NCBI RefSeq assembly: GCF_023347235.1
Contig: NZ_CP094467.1
Coordinates: 806,001-870,000, forward strand
Direction: 5' to 3'
Length of the DNA stretch: 64,000 nucleotides
DNA from: Faecalibacterium sp. I4-1-79
Lineage (GTDB): Bacteria; Bacillota; Clostridia; Oscillospirales; Ruminococcaceae
The position numbers and the translations under genes were made by a program. Below are positions 6,664-45,835 of this stretch, one piece after another (position 1 is the stretch's first letter; every line of letters starts with the position of its first letter). The notes under the pieces were generated by a model. That model searched no databases and was not told the origin of the DNA. It saw nothing but the letters and a program-made list of their open reading frames with translations.

Positions 6664-6778
6664 CCCCTCCCGTGAAAATGCAAAGCCGGAGCGTCCGCAG
6701 ACGCTCCGGCTTTGCTCTATTAAAAATATTCTTTCCGCTATTTATGCGCAGAGCAACGCGGAGCGCATTTGAATCGTT
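6664..6778 (-). repeat. Two-hairpin 3' element, full copy A
   Basis: In minus-strand sense it begins directly after the stop of the binding-protein gene: ACGATTC, hairpin 1 ATGCGC/GCGCAT, the linker AGCGGAAAGAATATTTTT, hairpin 2 with core GGAGCGTCTGCGGACGCTCC flanked by CAAAGCC/GGCTTTG, then CATTTTCACGGG. It is likely to form the 3' end of the transcript. Confidence 0.7.
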
Positions 6779-8803
6779 TTACCGTGCATCCCGGTTGGCG
6801 TTATACTCGTCCATGGAAACGTAGTGGTCGAGGATATGGATGCCCTTCAGGCGGTTCGAGGAAAAGCCGGTGGGGGCGTACTGTCCCTCCCACAGGTTCA
6901 GCCGGGTGGCAATGTAGGGCGGAACCGGCAGGCTGAGCGGGATGACCAGCGCATTCTCGATGAGGTACGCCTCGGCATCGGCAAAGGCGGCGTACCGGGC
7001 GTCGAGGTCAGCGGTGATGGCCTTGGCCTTTTCTACCATGTCCATGTAGGTCATGACATAGTCGGCGGTCTCGCCGGTGATGATGCCGTCCTCTACGCCG
7101 GTGCGCAGAAAGGCATAGCAGGTGCCCCGGTCGCCCGCTTCCTGATAGAAGGGGTACACTTCGGTCTCGGGGTCGGAGTAGTCCGCGCCCCAGTAGTAGG
7201 ACATGAACTCGTAGGCACCCGCGCGGCGCACTGCGTTCAAAAAGTTATCCGACGGCCCCTGCGTGATGATAATATCCACAAAGTCAAAGCCGTCGTTCAG
7301 TACGCCCTCTACCTGCTGCTTGAACACCTGACACTGCTTGTCCCAGTCCACCACGGCGGGGTTGTAGGGGTACTGCACCTTAATGGGGAAGGTAGCCCCC
7401 GCAGCGGTCAGCTCCTGCACGGCGGCGTCGCGGTACTGCTTGGCGGTGGCTTCGTTGAAGTGGTCGGTCACCTTGGCAAGCGCGCCGCATTCGGTGTAGT
7501 CCACGCCCTTGCTGTCCGCGCAGAAGGAGGGCGGGGTGATGGTGTGCAGCTTGTAGTTTTCGTACCCTTCCGGCGCAGTGACCGCCAGCGTAACGGCGGG
7601 GTTGATGGCGTAGAGGAACGCCTTGCGGAAGTTGGTGCTGTTCACCGCCTTGGCCCAGTTGTCCGGCTGGTACTGGGCATCCACGCCGGTGGTGTTCCAG
7701 TTGGGGAACTGGTGGGCGTAGGGCAGGAAGTTGAAGAAATAAAAGTAGCTCTTGCCGGTCTCCGGGCGATCCATGGACACCATATCCTTGGTGGTATCGT
7801 CTGCCAGCCAGCTGTCCAGAATATCCGAGCTGATGGTGGCCTGATCGATCTCGCCGCGCCGCACCATCTCCGGGCCGCTGATGAGCGCCTCCTGATTGTA
7901 GATGTAGCGGATGGTGTCGATGTAAACATTGTCCTTATCGTAGTTTTCGGGGTTTTTCTTCATCACCCAGCTTTCCAGCGGGGTGTACTCTGCCAGATAG
8001 AACGCACCGCAGTTGCAGGCGGTCTCGGCGCTGGTGCAGAACTGGTCGCCCAGCTCCGCCAGCATGGGGCCGTAGGCAGGCTCAAAGGGGGCGTAGTTCA
8101 AAAGGCTCAAAAAGCCCGGGAAGTCGTAGTTCAAAGTATAGGTCAGGGTGTGCTCGTCCACAGCTGCCACGCCCACGGAGGAAAAATCCACAGCAGGGCA
8201 GGTGGTGGTGCTGCCGTCGGCGGCGGTCAGGGTCACGGTGCCTGCGGCGTCGATGGTGTAGGTGGTGCCGTCCTCGGCTACGGTGCCGTTGTTGGCGTTG
8301 TTGCGCCAGACGCAGTAGTTATAGTAGTCCTCAGCCCCGGCCACATAGGGGGTGACAAGGCTGGCGGTGCCGGAGGCGTAGTCCGGGTTCAGCAGATAGG
8401 CCAGCGCGTCCACAAAGTCCTGCGCGGTCACAGGGCCAAGCACCGCGCCAGTATAGTCCACCCAGTTCTCATCCCGCAGGTGGAAGGTCCATGTCAGGGT
8501 GTCGGCGTCCCACTCCCAGCTGGTGGCAAGGCCTTCGCGGATCTTACCACGGCTGTCGTACTCCACCAGCGTGTCCACGCAATGGGTGCCGTGGTACAGG
8601 TCCGGGTCGGCAGAGCAGATGAGATAATTCAGGGTGGCGGGCTGGCGGGCATACAGCACGGTGTAGGTGGCGCTGCCGTCACCGGCAGTGTCGCCCGCAG
8701 CGGAGCCGCCGCAGCTGCTCAGCAGCCCGGCAGCAGCGGTAGAAAGGGCTGCCGCACCGCCGGCCTTCAAAAACTGACGGCGGGAAAAAGCATGATGCAT
8801 CAT
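6779..8803 (-). CDS. Peptide-type ABC transporter substrate-binding lipoprotein (family 5)
   Basis: A 674-residue extracellular binding protein. The N-terminus has SRRQFLKAGG (twin-arginine-like), a hydrophobic region and the lipobox LLSSC (Cys about 31), so it should be lipid-anchored. The mature part follows the SBP_bac_5 pattern: VLYARQPATLNYL, TWTFHLRDENWVDYTGAVLG and TAQDFVDALAYLLNPD near the start. It is longer than most DppA/OppA proteins (about 540), with an insertion around residues 150-200. The two adjacent ATGs (8803, 8800) both lie behind AGAGG; the first was chosen. It heads the importer operon, with a promoter and leader hairpin upstream. Confidence 0.9.
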   Translation of the reverse strand: MMHHAFSRRQFLKAGGAAALSTAAAGLLSSCGGSAAGDTAGDGSATYTVLYARQPATLNYLICSADPDLYHGTHCVDTLVEYDSRGKIREGLATSWEWDADTLTWTFHLRDENWVDYTGAVLGPVTAQDFVDALAYLLNPDYASGTASLVTPYVAGAEDYYNYCVWRNNANNGTVAEDGTTYTIDAAGTVTLTAADGSTTTCPAVDFSSVGVAAVDEHTLTYTLNYDFPGFLSLLNYAPFEPAYGPMLAELGDQFCTSAETACNCGAFYLAEYTPLESWVMKKNPENYDKDNVYIDTIRYIYNQEALISGPEMVRRGEIDQATISSDILDSWLADDTTKDMVSMDRPETGKSYFYFFNFLPYAHQFPNWNTTGVDAQYQPDNWAKAVNSTNFRKAFLYAINPAVTLAVTAPEGYENYKLHTITPPSFCADSKGVDYTECGALAKVTDHFNEATAKQYRDAAVQELTAAGATFPIKVQYPYNPAVVDWDKQCQVFKQQVEGVLNDGFDFVDIIITQGPSDNFLNAVRRAGAYEFMSYYWGADYSDPETEVYPFYQEAGDRGTCYAFLRTGVEDGIITGETADYVMTYMDMVEKAKAITADLDARYAAFADAEAYLIENALVIPLSLPVPPYIATRLNLWEGQYAPTGFSSNRLKGIHILDHYVSMDEYNANRDAR

Positions 8804-8825
8804 AAAAACCTCTTTCGCTCTTTGT

Positions 8826-8864
8826 AAAAAAAGAGGCAACGGAACCACATCCGTTACCTCTTTT
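8826..8864 (-). terminator. Terminator-like hairpin in the leader of the binding-protein gene
   Basis: On the minus strand AGAGGTAACGGA pairs with TCCGTTGCCTCT around a 6-base loop (one G-T pair) and is followed by seven T. It lies between the promoter (8902-8930) and the start codon (8803), about 30-70 nt into the transcript, so it should cut expression unless antitermination or another fold intervenes. Confidence 0.75.
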
Positions 8865-8901
8865 GAACAGTCTGTCGGCTATTACTGGTAACTTTAAGTC
8901 C

Positions 8902-8930
8902 AGTATAGCATTGTTTGGGCGCAACGTCAA
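8902..8930 (-). promoter_or_regulatory. Promoter of the peptide importer operon
   Basis: Minus-strand TTGACG (8925-8930) and TATACT (8902-8907) have a 17-base spacer. Transcription is expected to start near 8895, just ahead of the leader hairpin. Confidence 0.7.
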
Positions 8931-8954
8931 ATAGTTTCCACTGGGCTGCCGGTC

Positions 8955-9014
8955 TGCGCCCTCTCAGGCGCTCCCTTTGGGAGAGCTGTCACCGCAGGTG
9001 ACTGAGAGGGCGCA
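8955..9014. repeat. Imperfect 60-bp palindrome
   Basis: TGCGCCCTCTCA at the left and TGAGAGGGCGCA at the right form perfect 12-bp arms. Inside are CTCCCTTTGGGAG and TGTCACCGCAGGTGAC, which pair locally. It resembles the palindromic units of the neighbouring 120-bp repeats and has no coding potential. Confidence 0.55.
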
Positions 9015-9033
9015 GCAAGGCTAATGGGTGTTG

Positions 9034-9158
9034 CCCCTCATCCGGCGCTGCGCGCCACCTTCCCCCGGCGGGTGAAGGCTTCAGCGGCGGCGGGAAAGTT
9101 CCCGGCAGCACCCAAAGGCTCCCCCTTGGGGGAGCTGGCGCGTTAGCGCCTGAAGGGG
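9034..9158. repeat. GC-rich palindromic repeat (about 120 bp), copy 2, inverted
   Basis: This is the reverse complement relative of 6468-6586, from GCCCCTCATCCGGCGC to GCGCCTGAAGGGGTGA, sharing the central GGCTTCAGCGGCGGCGGG segment. The two copies lie in opposite orientation on either side of the binding-protein gene. Together with the adjacent elements it fills the gap 8804-9284, where I see no gene. Confidence 0.6.
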
Positions 9159-9164
9159 TGACCC

Positions 9165-9279
9165 CTCCCCGTGAAAATGCAATGCCGGAGCGTCCGCAGA
9201 CGCTCCGGCATTGCTCTATTTAAAATAATTTTTCCGCTATTTATGCGCAAAGCAACGCGGAGCGCATTCCCAATCGTCC
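9165..9279 (-). repeat. Two-hairpin 3' element, full copy B
   Basis: It follows the stop of the 4Fe-4S gene on the minus strand. Hairpin 1 is ATGCGC/GCGCAT; hairpin 2 has the common core GGAGCGTCTGCGGACGCTCC with outer arms CAATGCC/GGCATTG, so two positions have changed together relative to copy A. Confidence 0.7.
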
Positions 9280-9284
9280 GGCTG

Positions 9285-10595
9285 TTACTCGGAGCGCGGC
9301 GCTTCGAGACTGGGTGCAGCAACGTTTGCAGGGGCTGCGCTCTGCCCGGCGGGGATGGTATCGGGCAGGGCAGTGGCGGCGGTCTCCGCAGTCTTTACGG
9401 CAGCTTCGGCGGCAGTTTCTGCCATAGCTTCCGCAGCGTTTTCCGCTGCCTTGGCGGCTTCCTCAGCGGCTTTGGCGGCACGCTCGGCCTTCAGCTGCTC
9501 GGCGCGCAGACGCGCTTCCTCCTGCCGCTTCTGGGTGCGCGCCTTGATGCGGCACACCGAGCACAGACCCTCGGCGCTGTCCGGGGCAATGGGCTTGCCG
9601 CACTGCTTGCACAGGGTCTTGGTGCACTTGTGCAGCACCACGGGGCCAAGGGTGGTAAGCTGGTACAGCTTCATGCCGTCAAAGCCCTTGTTGGAGCACA
9701 CGTTCATGCACACGCCGCACTCGCTGCACTTCCACGGGGTAAGCACCATGCGGGTCTGACCGTTTGGCATCTCCTCAAACTTCAAAGCGTTGGCGCGGCA
9801 GGCTTTTTCGCACCGGCCGCAGCCAAAGCAGTTGTCGGTGAATTTGGGCATATAGTAGCCGTACTGCAGGGGCGTTTCCATGGCGGCTTTCAGCTGCTTT
9901 GTGCGCTGGTGCAGCAGCAGACGGAAGTCCACCCCGCTGTCCTCCTCGCTGCGCAGACCGGGCAGCATTTGCAGCAGCTTTTTGGTGCCGCTCTTGGAGC
10001 CGTGGCTCACCTGTTCCAGCATCTCGCGGCGGGTCAGCTCCTGCACATGGTAGGGGTACTCCTTTTCCTCATAAGCCAGCGAGAACCGCGCTTCGAACAT
10101 CGGCTGACCGAAAAAGTCCACAAGGCGGGTCAGCTCCTTACGCAGCTGCTCGGCGCAAAGGTCGTTCTCGCACTGCCCGCAGGGGGTCAGGTCCAGCACG
10201 ATCTTTTTGTTCAGCGCCAGATATGCCAGCGCCTCCCACGAAAGCGCACAGATGCAGCTGCGCACCACGGTGTTTTTGCGGGTGGATTTTTCACAGCCGA
10301 TCCAGATGGTATCGCTGTCGGTGTCCGCCGCGGCGGTATCCCGCTGCACCTGCTCGGGCGAGGGGGCGATGCAGCCGCTGCGGCAGGCGGAAACGCACAG
10401 CCCGCAGTCGGTGCAGGGGTCCCAGTCCTTGACAAGGTTCGGGCGGGTAAAGATCTCCTCGCCGTATGGGCAGATGTCCTTGCAGGTCGTGCAGGGCTTG
10501 CGGTGGGGGTGCAGGTTCCAGCACTGGCGGCGGTTGATCTCGGGATGGCTGGTCTTCATCAGGGCATCCATTGCAGTTCTGGTAAAAAAGCCCAT
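9285..10595 (-). CDS. Multi-cluster 4Fe-4S ferredoxin-like protein with an Ala-rich tail
   Basis: A 436-residue cytoplasmic protein. The start at 10595 has AAGGAG 8 bases upstream. Cysteine motifs occur in order: CTTCKDIC and CTDCGLCVSAC (residues about 35-75), CGQCENDLC (about 140), CFGCGRCEKAC and CSECGVCMNVC (about 255-310), and a zinc-ribbon-like CKQCGKP...CSVC. The last 90 residues are a charged, then alanine-rich, probable coiled coil (ERAAKAAEEAAKAAENAAEA). It could shuttle electrons for an unidentified oxidoreductase. No reductase subunit is adjacent. It starts four bases after the trigger-factor-like gene, so the two are co-translated. The exact role is unknown. Confidence 0.75.
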   Translation of the reverse strand: MGFFTRTAMDALMKTSHPEINRRQCWNLHPHRKPCTTCKDICPYGEEIFTRPNLVKDWDPCTDCGLCVSACRSGCIAPSPEQVQRDTAAADTDSDTIWIGCEKSTRKNTVVRSCICALSWEALAYLALNKKIVLDLTPCGQCENDLCAEQLRKELTRLVDFFGQPMFEARFSLAYEEKEYPYHVQELTRREMLEQVSHGSKSGTKKLLQMLPGLRSEEDSGVDFRLLLHQRTKQLKAAMETPLQYGYYMPKFTDNCFGCGRCEKACRANALKFEEMPNGQTRMVLTPWKCSECGVCMNVCSNKGFDGMKLYQLTTLGPVVLHKCTKTLCKQCGKPIAPDSAEGLCSVCRIKARTQKRQEEARLRAEQLKAERAAKAAEEAAKAAENAAEAMAETAAEAAVKTAETAATALPDTIPAGQSAAPANVAAPSLEAPRSE

Positions 10596-10599
10596 GGTC

Positions 10600-11574
10600 T
10601 TACTCCTTTTCCACAACAGAGGTAAGGGCAGCGTGGTCGAGCAGGAAACGCTGCACCTTCTGGTTGGTCACGGCGGCGGCGATGGCGTCCCGGCTCAGCA
10701 CCTTGCGGATCTCTTCTTCCGGGGTGTCGTGCAGCTTGGAAAGGCGGGCGATCTCGGCGTCCACCTCCTGCTGGGTCACGGTGATCTTTTCAGCTTCGGC
10801 GATGGCGCGCACTGCCAGCATTGCCCGCAGCTGTCGCTCGGCTTCCTTGCGGTAGCCCTCCCGCACCTGCTCCGGGGTCAGCCCGGCGCTCTTGCAGTAG
10901 AGCTCCATGGTCATCTGGCTCTTGCGCAGCCGCTGGCGCAGCTGGGTCATCTGGTATTCGGCGTTCTGTGCCAGCAGCTCTGCGGGCAGTTCCACGGTCA
11001 GGTTCGCGCCTGCCATATCCAGCAGCGCCGCCCCGGCAATGCGGTCGGCGTTGGCTTCGTGGGACAGGCGTTTTTTCTCCCGCAGGCTCTCCCGCAGGGC
11101 TTCCAAGTCCGCAAAGCCCTGTGCCTTGGCAAAGGCATCGTCCACCGGGGGCACCTGCTTGCGCTCTACCGTGTGCAGGCAGATCTCAAACTGCGCCGTC
11201 TTGCCGGAAAGCTCCGGCACCCGGAAGTCGGCGGGGTAGGTGAAGTCGAAGCGGAAAGTCTCGCCCGCGCAGTGGCCGTACACCGCTTCCTCAGCGGCGG
11301 GCATCAGCTGCCCGGTGCCCAGCACCACGGTCACCTTTTCCATCCGGCTGTCCGGGATGGGCGCACCCTCCAGAAAGCCCTCGAAATCCAGCGTGACGCG
11401 CATCCCGCGGGCGGCGGGCGCGTCAGTCGGCACAAAGGGCGCGTGGACCCGCGCCAGATTGCCGATATCCGCTTCTACGGCCTTTTCCGATACCGGGCGC
11501 ACCCGGCGGGTGAAGGCAAGCCCCTTGTACTGCCCTAAGGCGGCAGCGGGCATGGTGTTTGCAGTCTGTTCCAT
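10600..11574 (-). CDS. Trigger-factor-like protein lacking the ribosome-binding domain
   Basis: A 324-residue protein. Residues about 55-140 match the FKBP-type peptidyl-prolyl isomerase domain of trigger factor (RGMRVTLDFEGFLEGAPI ... VVLGTGQLMPAAEEAVYG ... FDFTYPADF). Residues 150-320 match the helical substrate-binding C-domain. The roughly 110-residue N-terminal ribosome-docking domain with its GFRxGKxP loop is missing and replaced by about 50 residues. It therefore probably acts as a ribosome-independent chaperone/isomerase. AAGGAG lies 10 bases before the ATG. It sits between a membrane protein gene and the Fe-S gene, and may help the Fe-S protein fold or hold its apo form; that link is inference. 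Confidence 0.8.
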   Translation of the reverse strand: MEQTANTMPAAALGQYKGLAFTRRVRPVSEKAVEADIGNLARVHAPFVPTDAPAARGMRVTLDFEGFLEGAPIPDSRMEKVTVVLGTGQLMPAAEEAVYGHCAGETFRFDFTYPADFRVPELSGKTAQFEICLHTVERKQVPPVDDAFAKAQGFADLEALRESLREKKRLSHEANADRIAGAALLDMAGANLTVELPAELLAQNAEYQMTQLRQRLRKSQMTMELYCKSAGLTPEQVREGYRKEAERQLRAMLAVRAIAEAEKITVTQQEVDAEIARLSKLHDTPEEEIRKVLSRDAIAAAVTNQKVQRFLLDHAALTSVVEKE

Positions 11575-11604
11575 AGTCGAACACTCCTTTTTATAAAAGC
11601 GGCG

Positions 11605-13527
11605 TTACAGCCCGCGGGCGGCCAGCCAGCTTTCTGCGATCTGGGAGAACATCTCCGGGTACTGGGCATCTTCTTCTTTAAAGGCGCTCAGGTAGTACTC
11701 CACCTCGGCGCGGGTGGGGCTTGCGGTGCGCCGCCATATCGTAAAGGTGGTGCCGTTGCCCATATCAAAGGTGGCTTCCTGTGTAAAGTACTCGTCCCGC
11801 ACCGCAAGGAACCTCTCGTTCAGCTTGTGGGACATCTCGCCGCTGCCCACAAAGGTCTGGGGGAAGGGGTCGGCGGTAAGGACGTACTTTGCCTCAAAGA
11901 ACTGCATGGGGAAGTTGTGGGTGCCCGGCACCGAGAAACCGAAGGCCAGCTTATCGTTGATGGGCATTTCGGGCAGAAGGCAGTTCTTGAAGTGATCCGG
12001 GCAGTACAGCATATCGTGGGGGATCATGTAGCTGAGCTCACCCTCGGCGCAGTGGGTGTCGATCCAGTTGGCAATGGCCTTGATCTGCGGCAGATCCTTG
12101 CGGTCGTAGATCAGCTTGTCCAGCCGGACGAACTCCGACGCCGCCTTGAGGGGGAAGTGATCCACCAGAAAGCCCGGCAGGGCAATGGTGGTCAGGGGAG
12201 AGCAGCGCACCGAGGTGGCAAACACCAGCGTGAACACCCAGAACACGACCTTTGCCGCCCGGAAGCGGCTGATGCCCTCGGCCAGCGCCGCGGCGCCCAG
12301 CAAAAACAGGAGAAACCACCCCGGGAGGAACAGCAGCATCTGGTGGGAGCCGGTGTTCTGGATGCGGGTGAACAGCAGCATGCTCAGAAGGATCTCCAGC
12401 CCGGCAAGGCAGGGCAGCGCGGGCATTTTGCGCTTTTTCAGGCTGAACCACAGCCCCATGCCCACGAGCACAAGGTTCATCAGACCCATGCGGAAGAAAT
12501 GCAGCGAGATCTCGGCCACAAAGCCGCCGCCGTTATAGTAGGAATAGCGCTCGGCGTAGCTGTAAGCGAGGATGCGGCTGACCATCGGCCACAGCAGGAT
12601 CAGCATGGCCACCATGCTCATCAGGCCGAACAGCACGAGGTTGCGCACCTGCAAAAGCGCCTGCTTTTTCTGCCCGGCGCGGGCAGTGCGCGCGCTGCTT
12701 ACCAGCACCAGCACCGCGTAGGCAAAGTAGTAGCCCACCACAAAGTATAAGTACCACCGGCGGGAAAGGATGATGGCTGCCGTGGCAAGGAACAACAGGC
12801 AAAAGCGCACCGGCTCCAGCTTTTCAAACCGGAAGTCCAGCGTGAGCAGCAGGATGCTGAAGGCGAAGATGAGGCCGAACCAGTCCGGCTGGCTGAGCAT
12901 GGCGCTCATGCGCAGCCACGGGTAGGTGACCATCCAGGTCATGCCGATGAGGAAGTACCAGAAGCGGTTTTTCACCCGCAGCATCTGCCCCACCTTGATG
13001 GTAAGCCCTGCCAGCAGCACCAGCAGCATGGGCAGGATGCTGAACACCTGACAGAAGGCAAAGCTGTCGCCGGTGCGGTCACTCAGGCAGAAGGGAAAAT
13101 CCAGAAACAGGGTGATGAAGTTGGTGTAGTCCTCGGCAAGGGAGCCGAAGATGTACTGGAAACCCGCCGCCGGGCTTTGCAAAAAGGCGGCCTCGGCGCC
13201 GTACTGTTTGTTGATATAGTTGACGTAATCCCAGATATACACAAAGCTGCGGCGGTTCAACGCCCAGAAAAAGTAGACCAGCGACGCCGCCCACAGGCCG
13301 ACGAGCACCGCTTTGTGGAAGAGGTCAAATTTGATCCCCGCCACCCGCAGCACCAGCAGCACACAGGCAAACAGCACTAAGTTGCACCACAGGCTCACCA
13401 GCGGAAAAAAGAACTTACTGCCGGGCGCAGCCAGCGCAAAAACGGCCAGCAGCACCGCCGCTGCAGCCAGCACCAGCGCAGTTTTCGCCGCAGCGGAAAC
13501 GCGGGGCTTTGTAATGGGTTCGGTCAT
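11605..13527 (-). CDS. Multi-span membrane protein, possible GT-C-type glycosyltransferase
   Basis: A 640-residue protein with about 10-12 predicted membrane spans in residues 15-450, followed by a roughly 190-residue soluble C-terminal region. The first extracytoplasmic loop has an acidic aromatic motif (YIWDYVNYINKQYG), the place where GT-C family transferases carry their catalytic Asp. The layout, together with the C-terminal globular part, suggests a polyprenyl-phosphate-sugar or similar transferase, but I do not recognise a specific family. The start at 13527 was chosen because GGAGGG precedes it by about 9 bases; the frame is open further upstream over the promoter. It is the first gene of an operon with the chaperone and Fe-S genes. 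Confidence 0.55.
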   Translation of the reverse strand: MTEPITKPRVSAAAKTALVLAAAAVLLAVFALAAPGSKFFFPLVSLWCNLVLFACVLLVLRVAGIKFDLFHKAVLVGLWAASLVYFFWALNRRSFVYIWDYVNYINKQYGAEAAFLQSPAAGFQYIFGSLAEDYTNFITLFLDFPFCLSDRTGDSFAFCQVFSILPMLLVLLAGLTIKVGQMLRVKNRFWYFLIGMTWMVTYPWLRMSAMLSQPDWFGLIFAFSILLLTLDFRFEKLEPVRFCLLFLATAAIILSRRWYLYFVVGYYFAYAVLVLVSSARTARAGQKKQALLQVRNLVLFGLMSMVAMLILLWPMVSRILAYSYAERYSYYNGGGFVAEISLHFFRMGLMNLVLVGMGLWFSLKKRKMPALPCLAGLEILLSMLLFTRIQNTGSHQMLLFLPGWFLLFLLGAAALAEGISRFRAAKVVFWVFTLVFATSVRCSPLTTIALPGFLVDHFPLKAASEFVRLDKLIYDRKDLPQIKAIANWIDTHCAEGELSYMIPHDMLYCPDHFKNCLLPEMPINDKLAFGFSVPGTHNFPMQFFEAKYVLTADPFPQTFVGSGEMSHKLNERFLAVRDEYFTQEATFDMGNGTTFTIWRRTASPTRAEVEYYLSAFKEEDAQYPEMFSQIAESWLAARGL

Positions 13528-13563
13528 GGAACAAGACCCTCCTTGCAAAGTTTCATACCTTAC

Positions 13564-13592
13564 AGTATAACAACTCCCCGGGGCACTGTCCA
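13564..13592 (-). promoter_or_regulatory. Promoter of the membrane protein/chaperone/Fe-S operon
   Basis: Minus-strand TGGACA (13587-13592), 17-base spacer, TATACT (13564-13569). The -10 lies about 35 bases upstream of the chosen start codon. Confidence 0.6.
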
Positions 13593-13614
13593 GCACCCCG
13601 GCGGCGAAAAATGC

Positions 13615-13655: not shown

Positions 13656-13662
13656 ATAAATA

Positions 13663-18556: not shown

Positions 18557-18669
18557 GGGACGATCAAAAATGGCCGCCGCTTGTGCTTTGGCCATCTTTA
18601 GAGGAATAATTATTTTTACTTCGGGATAGCGGAGCGTCTGCGGACGCTCCGCTATCCCATTTTCACAGG
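18557..18669 (+). repeat. Two-hairpin 3' element, full copy E
   Basis: This is the only full copy on the plus strand, placed right after the plus-strand TetR stop, so it again lies sense and 3'. Hairpin 1 is ATGGCC/GGCCAT; hairpin 2 has the common core with outer arms GGGATAG/CTATCCC. It opens with GGGACGATC and closes with CATTTTCACAGGG. Confidence 0.7.
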
Positions 18670-18847
18670 GCAGGGACGTAACCGAAAACGGGCAGTTGCG
18701 CCCCGCCCATAAAAATACAAAGTCGGGCAGTCTGCGGGCTGTCCGATTTTTTGTTTTCACGGGGGGAGACACACCTTGACAAAACCACCAAAAAATAAGA
18801 CGAAAATTCGTCATCTGCACTTTTTTACCAGAATTTTTAAGAAAGAG
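18670..18847. other. Non-coding stretch with a second hairpin and a dyad
   Basis: A terminator-like hairpin TCGGGCAG/CTGTCCGA followed by TTTTTTG sits at about 18723-18749, and the flanking TTTTCACGGGG echoes the end of the two-hairpin element. Further on GACGAAAATTCGTC is a 6-bp dyad (near 18810-18823) that could be an operator for the adjacent TetR protein; this is speculative. No gene is seen. Confidence 0.4.
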
Positions 18848-26662: not shown

Positions 26663-26712
26663 CACGATTGGAGCCGTGACGGCAACCAGCCAGTTCTCCG
26701 TAGCAGCCCTTT

Positions 26713-26932
26713 CCGTGAAAACGGGACAGCGGAGCGTCCGCAGACGCTCCGCTGTCCCAAAATTATAAATGTTTTTCCGCTAAAAATGCCCAGCAACGAC
26801 GACGACCGCCGCCAGTGGCGGAAACAGGGAGGAGTTGTTGGGGCAGCGGCCAGCAAGACGCAAGTGCCGCCCAAGGCACGATGCGGATGCTGGGTGCCGC
26901 AACCCGTAAGACGCGGAGGGCATTCAAATCGT
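26713..26932 (-). repeat. Two-hairpin 3' element, full copy C with an enlarged first hairpin
   Basis: It lies sense and 3' of the threonine-aldolase-like gene. Hairpin 1 has stem ATGCCC/GGGCAT, but its loop is expanded by over 100 bases that contain further self-complementary segments (GTGCC/GGCAC; CCGCCACTGGCGG-type). Hairpin 2 keeps the common core with outer arms GGGACAG/CTGTCCC and ends CGTTTTCACGG. Confidence 0.65.
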
Positions 26933-28274: not shown

Positions 28275-28361
28275 GCGGATATGGCGGAATTGGCAGACGC
28301 GTTAGATTCAGGTTCTAATCGGGGCAACTCGGTGGAGGTTCAAGTCCTCTTATCCGCACCA
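28275..28361 (+). tRNA. tRNA-Leu (anticodon CAG)
   Basis: An 87-base class II tRNA. The acceptor stem GCGGATA pairs with TATCCGC, and the discriminator A is followed by an encoded CCA. The anticodon arm TTAGA-TTCAGGT-TCTAA gives CAG, reading CUG. The long variable arm and GGTTCAAGTCC T-arm fit tRNA-Leu. A consensus promoter lies 45 bases upstream and a terminator follows. Confidence 0.95.
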
Positions 28362-35062: not shown

Positions 35063-35107
35063 ATGTTTTTTCCGCTGAAAATGCTCAGAGGGCATTCAGG
35101 CTCGTCC
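35063..35107 (-). repeat. Two-hairpin 3' element, fragment G
   Basis: In minus sense it reads GGGACGAGCCTGA, a shortened hairpin 1 (ATGCCC/GGGCAT-type arms with a tiny loop) and AGCGGAAAAAACAT; hairpin 2 is missing. It lies downstream of the candidate minus-strand transcript at 35137-35306, in the usual sense-3' arrangement. Confidence 0.5.
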
Positions 35108-39826: not shown

Positions 39827-39834
39827 GGTACGGC

Positions 39835-40254: not shown

Positions 40255-40269
40255 AAATTTCTACAAACA

Positions 40270-40307
40270 AACAGGCGGCTGTACAAAATGCTGTACAGCC
40301 GCCTGTT
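40270..40307. terminator. Bidirectional terminator between convergent genes
   Basis: AACAGGCGGCTGTACA and TGTACAGCCGCCTGTT form a perfect 16-bp stem with a 6-base loop. It serves the plus-strand DUF3842 gene and probably the minus-strand HD gene. Confidence 0.85.
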
Positions 40308-40315
40308 TAGTTTAT

Positions 40316-40903
40316 TCAGCGCATATTGCTGGTGCGATGCTCCATCAGGTAGGTAGCCTGCAGGTCTGCGATGTGCAGTTTGACCGCCAGCGGGTACTTG
40401 TCGTAAGCTTCCGAGATGGCAAAACAGCCGCCCCGGGCAGCATCGTCAAAGCCGCCCATGTGCCAGCGGATGGCAACCGCTTCCTCCACCTTCAGCTTCA
40501 TGAACCGCTCGATGAGGAACACGCTCTTTTCGCCGTGACCGTAGGGAAAAAGGTCGTCCACACTGTAAAAAGGCGCTTTCTCCCACTGTCCGGTGGCTTC
40601 GTTCTTCACGTTGCGGGTGCCCAGCTTGTAGTAGTTGGCCTTGCACAGATCGTGCAGCAGGGCACAGATGGCGTAGCTTTCCTCGCTTTCGCCCTCGGTG
40701 AAAAAGCTGTCGTGCAGCGCGTGGTAGACGTTCAGGCTGTGCATACACAGCCCGCCCTCACAGGCTCCGTGAAAACGGGTGGACGCCGGTGCGGTGAAAA
40801 AATCCGTCTTTTTGTCCAGCCAGTCCAGCAGCTTTTCGCTGCCCGGGCGGGTGACATGCTGCTGCCACACGTCCAGAAACTCTGCGCGGTCGCCCCCGCT
40901 CAC
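40316..40903 (-). CDS. HD-domain phosphohydrolase-like protein
   Basis: A 195-residue cytoplasmic protein. Metal-binding histidines follow the HD pattern: FHGACEGGLCMHSLNVYHAL, CALLHDLCKANYYK (the HD pair), YGHGEKSVFLIERF and AIRWHMGGFD. Its substrate, perhaps a nucleotide, is unknown. It starts at a GTG (40903) that overlaps the stop of the PC4-like gene (GTGA), with GGAGG about 10 bases upstream, so the two are translationally coupled. Confidence 0.8.
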   Translation of the reverse strand: MSGGDRAEFLDVWQQHVTRPGSEKLLDWLDKKTDFFTAPASTRFHGACEGGLCMHSLNVYHALHDSFFTEGESEESYAICALLHDLCKANYYKLGTRNVKNEATGQWEKAPFYSVDDLFPYGHGEKSVFLIERFMKLKVEEAVAIRWHMGGFDDAARGGCFAISEAYDKYPLAVKLHIADLQATYLMEHRTSNMR

Positions 40904-41121
40904 AGCTCCATATCCTCCAGAATGCCCTTGAGGATGGCCAGCTCGTCGTGGCTCAGGGAGATACCCTTGCCCATGCGGGTGCCGTCCGGGGACCAGTCGC
41001 GGATGTCGTACTTAGGCTCGCCGTCGTTCCAGCTGATAAGGTTCAGCTGACGCTCCCAGCCGCGGGGACGCTGGCTCAGCACGGCTACACGCTGGACAAC
41101 TTCGTATTTGATCTCTGCCAT
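40900..41121 (-). CDS. PC4-like single-stranded-nucleic-acid-binding protein (YdbC family)
   Basis: A 73-residue protein, MAEIKYEVVQRVAVLSQ with a following GWERQLNLISWNDGEPKYDI and the C-terminal helix LSHDELAILKGILEDM. This matches the bacterial YdbC/PC4 family, whose members bind single-stranded DNA. AGG is 9 bases before the ATG. It has its own promoter and is coupled to the HD protein gene; a joint role in nucleic-acid or nucleotide metabolism is plausible. Confidence 0.8.
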   Translation of the reverse strand: MAEIKYEVVQRVAVLSQRPRGWERQLNLISWNDGEPKYDIRDWSPDGTRMGKGISLSHDELAILKGILEDMEL

Positions 41122-41155
41122 ATTGCAAAACCTGCCTTTATGTTTGTATGCTACC

Positions 41156-41184
41156 ATAATAAGGGAAGTGCGGCGAGATTTCAA
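41156..41184 (-). promoter_or_regulatory. Promoter of the YdbC/HD operon
   Basis: Minus-strand TTGAAA (41179-41184), 17-base spacer, TATTAT (41156-41161). Confidence 0.7.
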
Positions 41185-41222
41185 CAGGTAAACTGAAATA
41201 TTTTAAAAAATTTTTGTTACGC

Positions 41223-41624
41223 TCAGCCGTAAGGGGCGTCCTCGCGCCATTCCACCAGCTCCAAAACGGCGGTCGTGTCCTCGTCCGGGGCAGGGTGGCG
41301 GCTGTGCAGCTTCTGCTTTGTGCTGAACAGTTCCGGTGCGTAGTGTGCCATCACGCTGGTCTGCACGTCCCCAGCCAAAAAGGCGGCGGCGTTCTTCTGG
41401 CGGCAGGCCACGGGAGTACCGTCTGTCATGGGGACGCCGGGCTTTTCCGGCTGCGGCTCCTCCGGCGGGGGCAGCTGGGTGCCGGGCATGTCCGGCGCAG
41501 CCGGGGGCTGCAGGGGCATACTGCCCAGCGGCGGGGCGATGCGGGTGCTGTTTGCCTGCGGGGCGGCAGCGGTGCCGGACTGGTTTTCCAGTTCGTGGCG
41601 GATGAAGGGTTCCAGAGAATTCAT
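41223..41624 (-). CDS. Unknown Pro-rich small protein downstream of sbcC
   Basis: A 133-residue protein, unrecognised. The ATG at 41624 was chosen because GGAGG lies 8 bases upstream. Residues 1-15 form a short helix (MNSLEPFIRHELENQ). Residues about 20-70 are Pro/Gly-rich and probably disordered (PPLGSMPLQPPAAPDMPG, PPPEEPQPEKPG). Residues 75-130 are a more ordered acidic tail containing MAHYAPELFSTKQKL and AVLELVEWRED. It has no signal or membrane span. It begins 41 bases after the sbcC stop and may be part of the sbcDC operon. Confidence 0.55.
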   Translation of the reverse strand: MNSLEPFIRHELENQSGTAAAPQANSTRIAPPLGSMPLQPPAAPDMPGTQLPPPEEPQPEKPGVPMTDGTPVACRQKNAAAFLAGDVQTSVMAHYAPELFSTKQKLHSRHPAPDEDTTAVLELVEWREDAPYG

Positions 41625-41665
41625 CAAATTCACCTCCGCCCCTAGTGTGCCCCGCCAGAAGCGTT

Positions 41666-44470
41666 TTACACCCGCAGCTCTATGGTGGAGCCGCCGGTGC
41701 GGGCCTTGTGCACCACCACCTGCCGGTCGATGCGGTCTTTCAGCGCCCCCACATGGGAGATGATGCCCACCAGACGGTCGCCCTCGGTCAGGCCGGAGAG
41801 CACCCGGATAGCCAGTTCCAGCGATTCCTCGTCCAGCGAGCCGAAGCCCTCGTCCAAGAACAAAGTGTCCAGCCGGATGCCGCCGGCGCTGCTCTGCACC
41901 TCGTCCGAAAGGCCAAGCGCCAGTGCCAGCGAAGCCTTGAAGCTCTCACCGCCGGAAAGGGTCTTTACGCTGCGGCGGGTGCCATTGTAGTGGTCGATGA
42001 CGCCAAGGTCCAGCCCGGACTGGCTGCGCTGGTTCTCTGCGCCGATGCGTTCCAGCTCGTACTGCCCGGCGGTCATCTGCATCAGGCGGGTGTTGGCGTA
42101 GCGCAAAATGCGGTCCAGATAGTTCATCTGGATGTAGGCTTCCAGTTTGATCTTCTGCTTGCTGGTCAAAGTGCCGCCCGCTGTGGCAGCCAGCGCGCTG
42201 ACCCACTGCCACCGGCTTTCCAGCGTCTGCCGCGCTTCGGCGGCCGCGCGGTACTGCGCCGCCGTTTTGCGGTTGGGCAGCAATTGTGCCGAAAGCTGCT
42301 TTTCCCGGCTGCGCAAAGTCTCCCGCGCGGCGGTCAGCGCGGTCTGCTGTGCGGTAAGTTCCTCGGCGCTGCGGGCGGGCAGCTCCTTTTGGGCGGCGGT
42401 CTGCTGTGCGGTCAGTGCATCCACGGCGGCTTCGGCGGCGGCAACGGTCTGCTCGGCCTGCTTCAGGCGGCGCTGTGCCGTGTCCATGCCGGCGCGCAGG
42501 GTGCGGCGGTCGGCTTCCAGCTTGTCCAGTGCCGCCTGCGCGTCCGCGCGCCGGGGGTAGGGCAGGGCGGCGCGCCGCTCTGCGATCTGCTCTTCCAACG
42601 CGTCTGCGCTGGCATTCTGGGCGGCGGCGTTGCGGTCAGCTTCGGCAGCGGCCTGTTCCAGCGCCGGGCGCTGGCGGGTCTTGTTTTGCCGGTCAGCTTC
42701 CAGCTGTGCCTTGCGGCGGCAGTCAGCTTCGGCCTGTCGGCACTGGGCGGCACAGCCGGCCTGTGCCGTCTGCAAGGAAGCGCTTTCCTCGGCCAGAACG
42801 TTGGTCATCAGGGCAAAGGTGAGGGGCACCGTGCCCTCCGGGGCGGTAAAGCGCTCCGGCAGCAGGGTCTCGGCGTCCCGCCGGAGAGAGATCTTTGCTT
42901 CGTTGGCAGTAGCCAGTGCGCTCTGGGCGGCAGCGCTGGCAGTCTGTGCCTGCCGGTCAGCCGCGGCAGCAGCCTGCCGTGCAGCTTCCACCTGCGCCTG
43001 CGTGGGTGCGGTATGGGGCAGCAGGGCGCGGGCAGGGTGATGGGTACTGCCGCACACCGGGCAGGGTGCGCCCTCGGTCAGGCTCTCGGCCAGCAGTCCG
43101 GCCTGTGCGTCCAAGAATGCCCGTTCCAGCGTATTCTGCCGGGTGCGGGCTTCGTCCTGTGCGGCGGCAGCGGCGCGGTAGCTCTCCTGCGCCTTGTGGG
43201 CGCGTTTGGCCTGATGCTGGCATTCCGCAAGGCGCTGTTCCAGCTTTGCCAGCGCTTCGCCGCGCTGTGCCAGCTGGGTGCTGCGGGTTTGCAGCGCCAG
43301 CAGCCGGGTGTCCGCGTCTGCCAGTGCGGAAAGTTCGGTCTCAGCGGCGGCAAGGGCGGCGTTCAGACTGTCCAGCTGGGTGCGCCGCTTGTGCGCCTGT
43401 GCTGCCGCCAGCCGGGCGGCGTCCCGCGCTTCGGTCTGCTGGCGGCAGAGGGCGTCCAGCGCGTCATAGGCCGCAAGGGCGCTCTGTGCCTGCGTCACCT
43501 GCGCGGTGAGGGCATCCAGCTGCGCAGCGTCCCCGGCGTGGCGGTCGGCTTCGGCGCGGGCAGCGTCCAGTGCGGGCCTTGCGGCGGCAAGCTCTGCCTG
43601 CCGGGCGGTCAGCTGCTGCGCCAGCCGCTGTGCCTGTGCGGCTGCACCCAGCTGCCGCTGCACCGTGTCCAGCTGTGCTTCGGTGGTTTGCAGGGCGGTG
43701 CCGGCTTCTTCCAGCGCCGCCGCCTGCCGTGCGGTCAGGGCGTCCAGTAAAGTAAGCGCCGTTTCCGGCACGGTCTGGGCGCACAGGGCGCACAGCGCCT
43801 CGGCGTCTGGGTCCTCCGGGCTGAATTGCAGCCCGCCCAGCAGGCTGTCCAGCTTGGCGTTCTGAGCGGTGCGCTGCTGGTTCAGCGCGGCGGCTTCTGC
43901 CTGCAAACGCTCCTGCAGTTGGGCATAGCGCTGGGTGCGGAACAGCTTGCGGAAGATGCGGCTGCGCTCCTCCGTAGAAGCGTTGAGCAGCTTTGTGAAC
44001 TGCCCCTGCGCAATGAGCACGATCTGGGAAAACTGGTTATAGTCCAGCCCGATGATCTCCTGCACGGCGGCGGTCACGTCCTTCGCCTTGGTCACCGGAG
44101 GGCGGGTGTCCGGGTAGGTCAGGGTGGCATCTGCTTTTTCGGTGGTCATGCCCTCGCCCCGGGCCTTGGGGCGCTGATACTCCGGGTTGCGGCGCACCGT
44201 GTAGCGCACACCGTGCACCTCAAATTCCAGCTCCACAAAGGTGGGGGTTTTGTCGTCTGCGTACTTGCAGCGCAGCATGGAGCCCTCCCGGATGCCGCTG
44301 CTGGAATGATCGTACAGCGCGTAGGTGATGGCGTCAAAAATAGTGGTCTTGCCCGCGCCGGTGTCGCCGGTAATGAGATACAGCCCGCCTTTGCCCAGTT
44401 TTTCAAGGTCAAGGGTAGTCTGGGCGGCATAGGGGCCAAAGGCCGAAAGGGTCAGTCGCAGCGGTCTCAT
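41666..44470 (-). CDS. sbcC: SbcC, ATPase subunit of the SbcCD nuclease
   Basis: A 934-residue SMC/Rad50-like protein. With SbcD it cleaves DNA hairpins and protein-blocked ends. The N-terminus is MRPLRLTLSAFGPYAAQTTL with Walker A GDTGAGKTTIFDAI (about 35). Two long Ala/Gln/Arg-rich coiled-coil arms (about 180-480, 530-780) flank a zinc hook, CPVCGSTHHP (about 475). The C-terminal ATPase half has LSGGESFKASLALALGLSDEVQ (signature) and TLFLDEGFGSLDEESL (Walker B). Its start overlaps the sbcD stop (ATGA). In a genome with many palindromic repeats this enzyme is apt, though that is only context. Confidence 0.95.
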   Translation of the reverse strand: MRPLRLTLSAFGPYAAQTTLDLEKLGKGGLYLITGDTGAGKTTIFDAITYALYDHSSSGIREGSMLRCKYADDKTPTFVELEFEVHGVRYTVRRNPEYQRPKARGEGMTTEKADATLTYPDTRPPVTKAKDVTAAVQEIIGLDYNQFSQIVLIAQGQFTKLLNASTEERSRIFRKLFRTQRYAQLQERLQAEAAALNQQRTAQNAKLDSLLGGLQFSPEDPDAEALCALCAQTVPETALTLLDALTARQAAALEEAGTALQTTEAQLDTVQRQLGAAAQAQRLAQQLTARQAELAAARPALDAARAEADRHAGDAAQLDALTAQVTQAQSALAAYDALDALCRQQTEARDAARLAAAQAHKRRTQLDSLNAALAAAETELSALADADTRLLALQTRSTQLAQRGEALAKLEQRLAECQHQAKRAHKAQESYRAAAAAQDEARTRQNTLERAFLDAQAGLLAESLTEGAPCPVCGSTHHPARALLPHTAPTQAQVEAARQAAAAADRQAQTASAAAQSALATANEAKISLRRDAETLLPERFTAPEGTVPLTFALMTNVLAEESASLQTAQAGCAAQCRQAEADCRRKAQLEADRQNKTRQRPALEQAAAEADRNAAAQNASADALEEQIAERRAALPYPRRADAQAALDKLEADRRTLRAGMDTAQRRLKQAEQTVAAAEAAVDALTAQQTAAQKELPARSAEELTAQQTALTAARETLRSREKQLSAQLLPNRKTAAQYRAAAEARQTLESRWQWVSALAATAGGTLTSKQKIKLEAYIQMNYLDRILRYANTRLMQMTAGQYELERIGAENQRSQSGLDLGVIDHYNGTRRSVKTLSGGESFKASLALALGLSDEVQSSAGGIRLDTLFLDEGFGSLDEESLELAIRVLSGLTEGDRLVGIISHVGALKDRIDRQVVVHKARTGGSTIELRV

Positions 44471-45609
44471 AGGGTGTCGCCCTCCTTCCAGATCTCCTCA
44501 ATCAGCGCTTGGCAGAACGCCGTCTGCTCGGCGGTCAGGGGCTGGTTATTCTGCAGCTGGTAGAAGGCTGCCAGATGCTCCAGCGGGGAGATGCTCTCGG
44601 TGCGCTCCGGGGCGCAGATCTCCTGCTGCTGGCGGGTGCGCTGGTTGTCGTAGTCCAGCTGCATCAGGTTGGGATAGATGACCCGCAGCCGCGCCAGCGC
44701 ATCCGGCACATCCTGCTCGTCGGTCAGGGTGATGTACAGGTAATCGTCCACGGCGGTGCCCTCGTAGCGGCTGCGGTCGGTCAGTTCCATGTAGCTGCCC
44801 CGCAGCCCGCGCAGCTCGTGCCGGGGGGTCAGGGGCGCGGTGGTGATGTGCACTTCGCCCTTTGCACCCAGCTCCACAAAGGTGGCGCTTTTGCACTGCC
44901 CCGCCTCCGAGAAGGAGTACTTCAGCGGCGTGCCGCAGTAGCGCAAGGTCTCCCGCCCCACCTTCTGCGGGCTGTGCAGATGCCCCAGCGCCACATAGTC
45001 AAAGGCATCGAACAGGGCGGCGTCCACGCTGTCCACCCCGCCCACCGAGGGTTCTTCGCTCTCGCAGGCGGCAGCACCCGCCACAAACTGGTGCGCCACC
45101 AGCACGCTGCGGTGGCCGGGGTCCGGGGTGCAGTGCCGCAGCACGCAGGCAAGGGCATCATTGTAGCTTTCAATGGGCTCGTCCGGCCAGACGTGCCGCA
45201 CCATGGCGGGCTTCAAAAAGGGCAGTAAGTACACATCCACCGTGCCGTGGGCATCCTGCAAAGGGATGGGCTGCGGCGCACCGGTGAACACCGGGCTGAC
45301 GTAGACTTGGCTGTCGGCCAGCAGGGCAGAGCCAAAGGCCACCCGGTCGGCGGAATCGTGGTTGCCGCTGATGGCGAACACCGGCAGCTTCCGCGCCGCC
45401 AGTTGGGTAAGGAACCAGTCCAGCAGCCGCACCGCTTCGGCAGGGGGAACGGGCTTGTCGTAAAGGTCGCCTGCCAGCAGCACGCCGTCCACAGGGGTCT
45501 CATCCAGCAGGGTCAGAATTTCTTCCAGAATATACCGCTGATCCTCCAGCATGGAAAACTCGCACACCCGCTTGCCCAGATGCAGGTCGGACAAATGCAG
45601 AAAACGCAA
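44467..45609 (-). CDS. sbcD: SbcD, nuclease subunit of the SbcCD complex
   Basis: A 380-residue Mre11-like phosphoesterase. Metal-binding motifs are LHLSDLHLGKRV, LLAGDLYDKPVP, ISGNHDSADRV and VALGHLHSPQ in the expected order. The C-terminal SbcD domain follows (about 275 onward). The start is a TTG at 45609, behind AAAGGCGG; this gives the canonical MRFLHLSDLHLG N-terminus. It is the first gene of the sbcDC operon and has its own promoter. Confidence 0.95.
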   Translation of the reverse strand: MRFLHLSDLHLGKRVCEFSMLEDQRYILEEILTLLDETPVDGVLLAGDLYDKPVPPAEAVRLLDWFLTQLAARKLPVFAISGNHDSADRVAFGSALLADSQVYVSPVFTGAPQPIPLQDAHGTVDVYLLPFLKPAMVRHVWPDEPIESYNDALACVLRHCTPDPGHRSVLVAHQFVAGAAACESEEPSVGGVDSVDAALFDAFDYVALGHLHSPQKVGRETLRYCGTPLKYSFSEAGQCKSATFVELGAKGEVHITTAPLTPRHELRGLRGSYMELTDRSRYEGTAVDDYLYITLTDEQDVPDALARLRVIYPNLMQLDYDNQRTRQQQEICAPERTESISPLEHLAAFYQLQNNQPLTAEQTAFCQALIEEIWKEGDTL

Positions 45610-45644
45610 ACAGGAACACCGCCTTTCAAAAAACGCTTTGCCCT

Positions 45645-45674
45645 ATTATAACGCAGCCGCCGCTGCACGCGCAA
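45645..45674 (-). promoter_or_regulatory. Promoter of sbcDC
   Basis: Minus-strand TTGCGC (45669-45674), 18-base spacer, TATAAT (45645-45650). Confidence 0.6.
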
Positions 45675-45725
45675 CCAAGGAGAACAGAAAAACGGACAAC
45701 TGCTGTTTGCCGTTGCGACCCCTTC

Positions 45726-45835
45726 TGTGAAAATGGGACACCGGAGCGTCCGCAGACGCTCCGGTGTCCCAAAATTTAAAATGATTTTTCCGCTGAATAT
45801 GGCCAAAGCGCACGCGGAGGCCATTCCAAATCGTT
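45726..45835 (-). repeat. Two-hairpin 3' element, full copy D
   Basis: It follows the peptidoglycan-binding gene on the minus strand. Hairpin 1 is ATGGCC/GGCCAT, like copy E but unlike A and B; hairpin 2 has the common core with outer arms GGGACAC/GTGTCCC. Confidence 0.7.

What the first reader, a model, noticed from the sequence alone, without database searches (positions are those of the whole stretch)
6664..45835. Dispersed two-hairpin element with compensatory changes, always sense and 3' of genes
Five full copies (6664-6778, 9165-9279, 18557-18669, 26713-26932, 45726-45835) and three fragments (2113-2160, 6211-6240, 35063-35107) share the order ACGATT - hairpin 1 - AGCGGAAAAAT.ATTTT - hairpin 2 - CATTTTCAC. 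Hairpin 2 always contains GGAGCGTCTGCGGACGCTCC. Its outer arms differ but stay paired: CAAAGC/GCTTTG, CAATGC/GCATTG, GGGACAG/CTGTCCC, GGGACAC/GTGTCCC, GGGATAG/CTATCCC. Hairpin 1 varies as ATGCGC/GCGCAT, ATGGCC/GGCCAT and ATGCCC/GGGCAT. Paired changes on both hairpins argue for selection on RNA (or cruciform) structure. All five full copies follow a stop codon in transcript orientation, including the single plus-strand copy. This suggests a 3'-end processing, stability or termination module, or a mobile element that targets gene ends.
Basis: seen in the sequence. Interest (0 to 1): 0.78.

Follow-up and report, generated by a model that had tools for sequence, protein, structure and literature searches.

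The report
Stem-swapping palindromic repeats in Faecalibacterium
A short two-hairpin DNA repeat, present roughly a hundred times per genome in one group of Faecalibacterium gut bacteria, behaves like a past or present mobile element whose hairpin stems are exchanged whole between copies, so its matched stem changes are not by themselves proof of a working RNA.

Summary
The repeat is real and goes far beyond the window: 131 kept of 149 model matches in the window's own Faecalibacterium genome. High numbers (74-120 scored matches, capped) occur in 8 of 31 genus genomes, which group together in a gyrB tree of 30 (90/97). Pairing is exceptionally well kept.

"Always sense and 3' of genes" fails genome-wide: in same-direction gaps 37 copies are sense, 32 antisense; divergent gaps are avoided. 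Sense copies do hug the stop codon (median 8.5 nt).

Much of the covariation between strains is whole-stem replacement: at 13 of 50 comparable orthologous sites hairpin 2 has a different but still paired stem, and 12 of the 13 stems occur at another site of the window genome. Loop inversions, hairpin-1 presence/absence and one clean empty site point to DNA-level events. In four complete genomes 69 of 70 close pairs are tail to tail, and single copies lean to one replication strand.

Best reading: a REPIN-like non-autonomous element of unknown mobiliser; hairpin 2 may serve as gene end where it landed in sense. It lacks the REP tag, so it is not filed as a REP.

The parts
6666..6780 (-). full copy 1; hairpin 1 6744-6768, hairpin 2 6680-6715; overlaps the stop codon of a family-5 solute-binding protein gene (6779-8803 -)
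6608..6642 (-). third (tail) hairpin GCAGCGCC..GGCGCTGC with the same CTGCGG tip, part of the longer element tail
6211..6234 (+). inverted 5' half of hairpin 1; with copy 1 it bounds a composite of about 570 nt with inverted ends
9165..9280 (-). full copy 2; hairpin 1 9243-9267, hairpin 2 9179-9214; in G009 the same site has the same hairpin-1 arms and another hairpin-2 stem, in G018 no copy is seen there
18557..18672 (+). full copy 3; hairpin 1 18570-18595, hairpin 2 18623-18658; in G018 the same site has no hairpin 1 and a different hairpin-2 stem
26709..26932 (-). full copy 4; hairpin-1 arms at 26910-26923 and 26786-26798 separated by an insertion of about 105 nt; hairpin 2 26723-26758
45721..45837 (-). 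full copy 5; hairpin 1 45799-45824, hairpin 2 45735-45770; the L042 allele (F. prausnitzii ATCC 27768) has the hairpin-2 loop inverted
2113..2160 (-). hairpin-1-only fragment fused to the end of an ABC-transporter ATPase gene (2148-3080 -), followed by part of another repeat
35063..35107 (-). hairpin-1-only fragment

Best explanation
It is a high-copy, non-autonomous palindromic repeat of REPIN/MITE type, largely confined to one group of Faecalibacterium. SHOWN: copies consist of separable modules (hairpin 1, hairpin 2, a tail with a third hairpin); they sit between genes and avoid divergent gaps; close neighbours are nearly always tail to tail; orthologous sites can be empty, lack hairpin 1, have the hairpin-2 loop inverted, or carry a different hairpin-2 stem that is again paired and in most cases known from other sites. 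INFERRED: copies spread as DNA hairpins, probably exposed as single strands at the replication fork, by an enzyme that reads the fixed CTGCGG tip and the hairpin shape rather than the arm sequence; stems are then exchanged between copies by ectopic gene conversion and kept perfect by template switching between arms. A copy that lands in sense directly behind a stop codon can take over as that gene's 3' end (hairpin plus T4-T6).
For: 131 kept matches in the genome; 8 of 31 genomes with 74-120 scored matches, 2 with 4-5, 21 with none, the 8 grouping at 90/97 in the gyrB tree. Clean empty site 155102 vs L046, where the copy interrupts a small palindrome. Hairpin 1 absent at shared sites in L033, L040, L041 and in G018 at copy 3. 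13 of 50 comparable orthologous hairpin-2 pairs replaced by another paired stem (10 of 60 mapped sites not comparable); all 13 G018 stems have the family's flanks and 12 of 13 occur at another G000 site. Hairpin 2 replaced with hairpin 1 unchanged at 796958 vs L052 and with unchanged hairpin-1 arms at window copy 2 vs G009. Two loop inversions among the 31 pairs shown. Close pairs (starts under 600 nt apart) tail to tail 12/12, 20/20, 18/18, 19/20; single copies lag:lead 69:38, 44:33, 32:19, 74:32 in G000, G030, G029, G018; 35:16 in convergent gaps, where gene direction cannot be the cause.
Against: No mobiliser identified: Y1 transposase PF01797 is found in 6 of the 8 high-copy genomes (one a fragment, one with a stop) against 5 of 23 others (p = 0.012), but not in G018 and G029, which have 148 and 87 matches. 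No target duplication shown. The strand lean is not significant alone in G030 (p = 0.25) and G029 (p = 0.09), and G000 and G018 share sites. The tip is nearly always CTGCGG on one strand although inversions occur, which an RNA reading (UNCG tetraloop; stability recalled, UNCG also named in PMC8794818) would also explain; with G018 no inversion at otherwise identical arms was seen in 50 pairs. Ori and ter were inferred from gyrB positions, not measured.
Confidence: 0.58

Rival explanations
1. A 3'-end RNA module: hairpins 1 and 2 are selected as RNA behind stop codons to terminate transcription or protect the message; paired changes reflect selection.
For: Strong covariation; tip CTGCGG in one orientation in 97 of 121 and in 97 of 109 hairpin-2-like sites of the fetched G018 loci; T-run usually of 4-6 after hairpin 2; sense tandem copies lie a median 8.5 nt behind the stop, antisense copies 176 nt from the stop they face; genes facing the hairpin-1 end have an own terminator-like hairpin before the element in 18 of 74 cases, genes facing the hairpin-2 end in 32 of 73, baseline gaps 28 of 78 (copies of 60 bits or more).
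Against: 37 sense vs 32 antisense in tandem gaps; T-run lengths similar in all orientation classes (means 3.8-4.3, no formal test); half-steps by G.T are rare (26 of 2222 cells against 620 double changes) and not clearly above A.C; stems replaced whole between strains; no Rfam family at gathering score on a copy in the window or in 10 loci; seven sub-threshold hits around copy 3, all far below their gathering scores.
Confidence: 0.17
2. A DNA-level landmark: perfect palindromes kept for protein binding, cruciform formation or chromosome organisation, spread long ago and now immobile.
For: High numbers in all 8 genomes of the group; 60 of 131 G000 sites map onto the 70 fetched G018 loci; no G.T excess by symmetric count; strand lean.
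Against: Arm sequence is too variable for ordinary sequence-specific binding (73 different strings in 121); hairpin 1 is missing at several sites; no binding protein known.
Confidence: 0.15
3. A passive repeat: only gene conversion and arm-to-arm template switching maintain the palindromes; there was no special transposition and there is no function.
For: Stem replacement, loop inversions, mosaic arms in the GCGTTTG class; template switching can pair stems and invert loops (PMC8794818, PMC8604942).
Against: Does not explain how so many sites arose in one group of genomes, the tail-to-tail pairing or the strand lean.
Confidence: 0.1

Closest known systems
REPINs / REP doublets (BIMEs) of Pseudomonas, E. 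coli and others
   Same: High-copy extragenic palindromes, mostly between convergent or same-direction genes, inverted doublets as unit, recognition that in a perfect-palindrome REP depends on the loop and its orientation (PMC3733652 abstract and passages, PMC8266576 abstract, passages and section 19, PMC3116915 abstract)
   Different: No GTAG or CGTC tag beside the hairpins; stems of about 16 bp against 5-13 bp; two unlike hairpins per unit; no Y1 transposase found in two of the high-copy genomes; whole-stem replacement between strains was not in the parts I read
IS200/IS605-type non-autonomous elements (hairpin ends, single-strand transposition; family traits recalled and from the PMC6006769 listing)
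   Same: Two hairpins, strand lean relative to replication, one insertion at a small palindrome; Y1 transposases commoner in high-copy genomes
   Different: No matching IS ends found; PF01797 not found in two high-copy genomes; target and cleavage sites unknown
MITEs such as Correia elements (recalled)
   Same: Short, non-autonomous, intergenic; inverted outer ends in pairs
   Different: Single copies have unlike ends; no target duplication shown; no transposase tied to it
Template-switch-maintained hairpins (PMC8794818 abstract and passages, PMC8604942 abstract)
   Same: Loop inversions and simultaneous paired changes
   Different: Here whole stems known from other sites appear, more than arm-to-arm copying alone would give
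Intrinsic terminators
   Same: Strong hairpin followed by T4-T6 just behind stop codons in sense copies
   Different: Nearly half of tandem-gap copies are antisense; T-runs no longer in sense copies

Membership tests
REP / REPIN | High-copy short palindromes in extragenic space | tested here: met
   131 kept matches, 3 inside gene calls
REP / REPIN | GTAG or CGTC unpaired tag next to the stem | tested here: not met
   Read by eye: hairpin 1 is preceded by ACGATTTnGA, hairpin 2 by TTTCG or ATAGA in the consensus and the listed copies
REP / REPIN | Inverted doublets as unit | tested here: met
   69 of 70 close pairs in four genomes are tail to tail
REP / REPIN | RAYT / TnpA-REP (Y1, PF01797) in the genome | tested here: not met
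   No match in G018 or G029; found in 11 of 31 genomes, 6 of 8 high-copy and 5 of 23 others, p = 0.012; RAYT and IS200 types not told apart
IS200/IS605-derived element | Ends and target of a resident TnpA | tested here: inconclusive
   One IS200-like copy lies directly 5' of a repeat copy at G000:2540815; ends not matched
IS200/IS605-derived element | Orientation bias relative to replication | tested here: met
   Lag:lead 69:38 and 74:32 for single copies, same direction but not significant in two more genomes; ori and ter inferred
MITE with TIR and TSD | Target site duplication | tested here: inconclusive
   The one clean empty site shows no obvious duplication
Structured RNA (Rfam-type) | Covariation above control | tested here: met
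   explained in part by stem replacement
Structured RNA (Rfam-type) | Match to a known family at gathering score | tested here: not met
   Only 6S and tRNA in the window, a TPP riboswitch in 10 loci, none on a copy; seven sub-threshold hits at copy 3
Structured RNA (Rfam-type) | Transcription of the element | not testable with these tools
   No expression data held
Intrinsic terminator | Sense orientation behind genes | tested here: not met
   37 sense, 32 antisense in tandem gaps

The most novel reading that the evidence does not exclude
A mobile or exchange system that is addressed by hairpin shape and a fixed CTGCGG tip while the stem sequence is free: an unidentified single-strand enzyme inserts, pairs and swaps hairpin modules between more than a hundred sites, so that each site carries an interchangeable, nearly always perfect stem, and some copies have become gene ends.
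Probability: 0.25. Interest if true: 0.78.

Novelty: new variant of a known kind. Interest (0 to 1): 0.55.

Why it matters
Covariation is widely taken as the best proof of a functional RNA. Here is a dispersed family in a major gut bacterium where much of the covariation between strains comes from exchange of whole stems. It is a natural warning case and a test bed for separating RNA selection from DNA-level stem exchange and template switching. It also documents a large palindromic repeat family outside the tagged REP classes, with no confirmed transposase, and could give markers for typing Faecalibacterium strains.

Tried and rejected
Pseudoknot between the hairpin-1 loop (CCGC) and downstream AGCGGA: conserved, but 0 of 5 pairs changed on both sides, and changes on the downstream side (AAGG, AGAGG, ATAGG) are not matched in the loop. 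Not supported.

RAYT/IS200 partner: PF01797 in 31 genus genomes is commoner in high-copy genomes (6 of 8 vs 5 of 23, p = 0.012) but not found in G018 and G029. Left open as a candidate, not accepted.

Terminator-only reading: T-run lengths similar across orientation classes. The terminator scan misses T4 runs, so its counts that include the element are low.

G.U versus A.C as proof of DNA-level constraint: symmetric counts (12:15; 7:12 in G018; both drop terminal mismatches) looked clear against ordinary terminator-like hairpins (61:28; Fisher p = 0.04). But bidirectional terminators are counted twice in that control, and a few of its hairpins look element-like (tip CTGCGG in 5 of 117). The model-fitted alignment gives 26:11, 15:10 without the outermost pairs, with several cells in rows whose hairpin 1 is broken. 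I treat the test as inconclusive.

Phage or plasmid origin: the exact 20-mer hits one viral contig with unrelated context; two unannotated human-gut phage records show 77.6% and 85.3% identity over part of copy 3 and were not followed; no plasmid match.

Other genera: 4 of 197 family genomes match at E <= 1e-5, two of them Faecalibacterium (G000, G016), the other two single weak hits. Five of the 41 genome-contig loci lie outside Faecalibacterium and share only the 20-mer hairpin core, not the family's flanks.

Literature: the searches that named Faecalibacterium (listings only, at most 20 rows each) showed no description of this repeat; the library is open-access only, so this is weak evidence of absence. 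Searches were searches for mechanisms. Seen: PMC8794818 abstract and passages; PMC8604942 and PMC3116915 abstracts; PMC3733652 abstract and passages; PMC8266576 abstract, passages and section 19; PMC6006769 listing only.

Rows dropped: of 149 listed matches, 131 kept; 18 dropped (mostly antisense shadows of kept palindromes, plus weak or partial ones at 236132, 891892 and 534853). Of 148 listed in G018, the 4 weakest were left out. In one search four of the 60 sites (29205, 3181622, 2524271, 2474148) were left out by hand because the hairpin found was unrelated, six more had no comparable hairpin. Two of the 13 replaced sites (490613, 2535652) lie in close pairs, where assignment is less sure; at 490613 the G018 stem equals that of its G000 partner copy. 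Alignments A2 and A3 had six rows with wrong limits and were replaced by A4. In one search eight loci were wrongly reversed; repeated correctly. One genome (G027) is missing from the gyrB tree, because at most 30 loci are returned.


Full report
WHAT WAS CHECKED. The window is G000:C1:806001-870000 of a complete 3,227,950-base genome. Exact core matches in named F. prausnitzii assemblies (36 of 41 loci) and about 95% identical flanks in them show that it is a Faecalibacterium. The five copies and three fragments exist as described, and all five full copies follow a stop codon in sense. Four points needed correction and are listed under the observation check; the main one is that the 20-base core is not constant genome-wide.

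ANATOMY. Consensus in sense: GGACGATTTnGAATG - hairpin 1 - TTCAGCGGAAAAATTATTTTTAATTTCG - hairpin 2 - CATTTTCACGGGAGGGG, in many copies followed by TCGTAAAGGnAAACGGCATTTGCAGCGCC and a third hairpin. Hairpin 1 has 6 pairs in a few classes (ATGCGC 31, ATGGCC 26, ATGCCC 20, ATGGCT 11 of the 114 found). Hairpin 2 has about 16 pairs; its tip is CTGCGG in 97 of the 121 copies (of 131) in which it was found, and the arm strings nearest the tip number 73. Some copies carry one recurrent insertion of about 105 nt in the hairpin-1 loop (window 26713 copy and others), and 2588355 carries another insertion inside hairpin 2.

COVARIATION. On 33 copies: 27 pairs counted, 12 changed on both sides, 97.2% of 891 cells paired, 0 of 500 shuffles as high (these 33 were chosen for the exact core, so the inner pairs of hairpin 2 could not vary). 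On 103 matches from G000: 20 of 22 pairs changed on both sides, 620 such cells, 98.2% of 2222 paired (alignment fitted to the model, one row a cut duplicate). The palindromes are beyond doubt. Whether RNA folding is the reason is a separate question. G.T against A.C cells came to 12:15 in a symmetric count, 7:12 in G018, 26:11 in the fitted alignment, 15:10 without the outermost pairs. A control of 117 terminator-like hairpins in the same stretches gave 61:28. I call this test inconclusive.

ORTHOLOGOUS SITES. One site is cleanly empty in L046, and the copy interrupts a small palindrome. At 1265698 the relatives L028 and L053 hold an ordinary hairpin instead, itself differing by paired changes between them. 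Hairpin 1 is missing in L033, L040 and L041. In the window: copy 1 is absent in G009 together with downstream sequence, which looks like a deletion; in G018 that site has a hairpin 2 of another stem class and no hairpin 1. Copy 2 has another hairpin-2 stem but the same hairpin-1 arms in G009, and is not seen in G018. Copy 3 lacks hairpin 1 and has another stem in G018, and has other hairpin-1 arms in G014. In the systematic comparison, 60 of 131 G000 sites mapped onto the 70 fetched G018 loci, all of which were fetched because they hold a match, so this says nothing on occupancy. Ten were not comparable; of 50, 23 were identical, 9 had one-sided or loop changes only, 5 had 1-3 paired changes and 13 had at least 4. 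In the 13, at most one of 14 pairs differs on one side only; all 13 G018 stems lie in the family's own flanks, and 12 of the 13 occur at another G000 site. At 796958 versus L052 hairpin 1 is identical and only hairpin 2 is exchanged. Two of the 31 pairs shown have an inverted loop (851721 vs L042, 17300 vs L033); with G018 the one inverted loop lies in a replaced stem. One-sided changes do exist, so correction is not immediate.

PLACEMENT. Gap classes for 131 copies: 51 convergent, 37 tandem sense, 32 tandem antisense, 7 divergent, 1 without an upstream gene, 3 inside a gene call. Divergent gaps hold 7 of 127 copies against 47 of 241 background gaps, p = 0.0002 (the background includes gaps with copies). 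Tandem sense copies start a median 8.5 nt after the stop, 25 of 38 within 30 nt; tandem antisense copies end a median 176 nt from the stop they face, 2 of 33 within 30 nt (which adds copies inside gene calls to these classes). So orientation is not preferred, but sense copies hug the stop. Genes facing the hairpin-1 end have an own terminator-like hairpin before the element in 18 of 74 cases, genes facing the hairpin-2 end in 32 of 73, baseline 28 of 78. This fits a takeover of the gene end by sense copies; it does not prove it, since there is often no room for another terminator.

PAIRS AND REPLICATION STRAND. Neighbours whose starts lie under 600 nt apart are tail to tail in 12 of 12 (G000), 20 of 20 (G030), 18 of 18 (G029) and 19 of 20 (G018) pairs. 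Single copies lie lag:lead 69:38, 44:33, 32:19 and 74:32, with p = 0.0035, 0.25, 0.09 and 0.00006. Genes in the fetched G000 stretches lean the other way, 239 lead to 197 lag, and in convergent gaps the copies are 35:16. Ori was set from the position of gyrB and ter at half a genome; moving ter between 42% and 58% does not change the direction.

DISTRIBUTION. A gyrB tree of 30 of the 31 puts the 8 together with support 90/97, just under the tool's own mark of 95/80; the two low-copy genomes lie in the neighbouring group. In the family, 4 of 197 genomes match, two of them outside the genus and weakly. A Y1 transposase is in 6 of the 8 high-copy genomes and 5 of 23 others (p = 0.012), but not found in G018 and G029.

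KNOWN KINDS. It works most like REPINs: extragenic palindromes, inverted doublets, convergent and tandem gaps (PMC3733652, PMC3116915), and like the perfect-palindrome REP whose transposase reads the loop and its orientation (PMC8266576, section 19). It is not filed as a REP, because the tag was tested and not met and a Y1 transposase is not found in two high-copy genomes. Template switching is a published route to paired changes and loop inversions (PMC8794818, PMC8604942) and probably acts here as well; exchange of whole stems between sites needs more, most simply ectopic gene conversion.

VERDICT. A real, large palindromic repeat family of one Faecalibacterium group; mobile origin likely, mobiliser unknown; much of its covariation between strains is stem exchange; a gene-end role for some sense copies remains open.

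Noticed in passing
window 41666-44470 and 44467-45594 (-): SbcC-like and SbcD-like genes (hairpin-cleaving nuclease, function recalled; domains) lie next to copy 5.
   Followed up: partly
G000:C1:2540218-2540574 (L138): An IS200-like transposase copy ends directly 5' of a repeat copy at 2540815.
   Followed up: partly
L027, L028 and window 2084-2160: A second variable-arm hairpin repeat (GCAATTCAAC..GTTGAATTGC and relatives) forms mosaics with hairpin 1 and hairpin 2.
   Followed up: no
tails of many copies, e.g. L148, L159, L166: Other dispersed repeats follow the element (GGAACGAACTCCCTCAGTCAAA.., GAGCTGTCGCGCAGCGACTGAGGGG..), nested and mosaic.
   Followed up: no
window 26786-26923; L003, L058, L130, L183: A recurrent insertion of about 105 nt sits in hairpin-1 loops whose outer arms differ.
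   Followed up: partly
window 18722-18747 (+): Another hairpin with the CTGCGG tip and a run of T lies just behind copy 3.
   Followed up: no
L028 vs L053 at the 1265698 site: An unrelated ordinary hairpin differs by several paired changes between two close strains, so the effect may be general in this genus.
   Followed up: no
window 52710-52914 (-) and 28275-28361 (+): 6S RNA and tRNA-Leu (cag).
   Followed up: no
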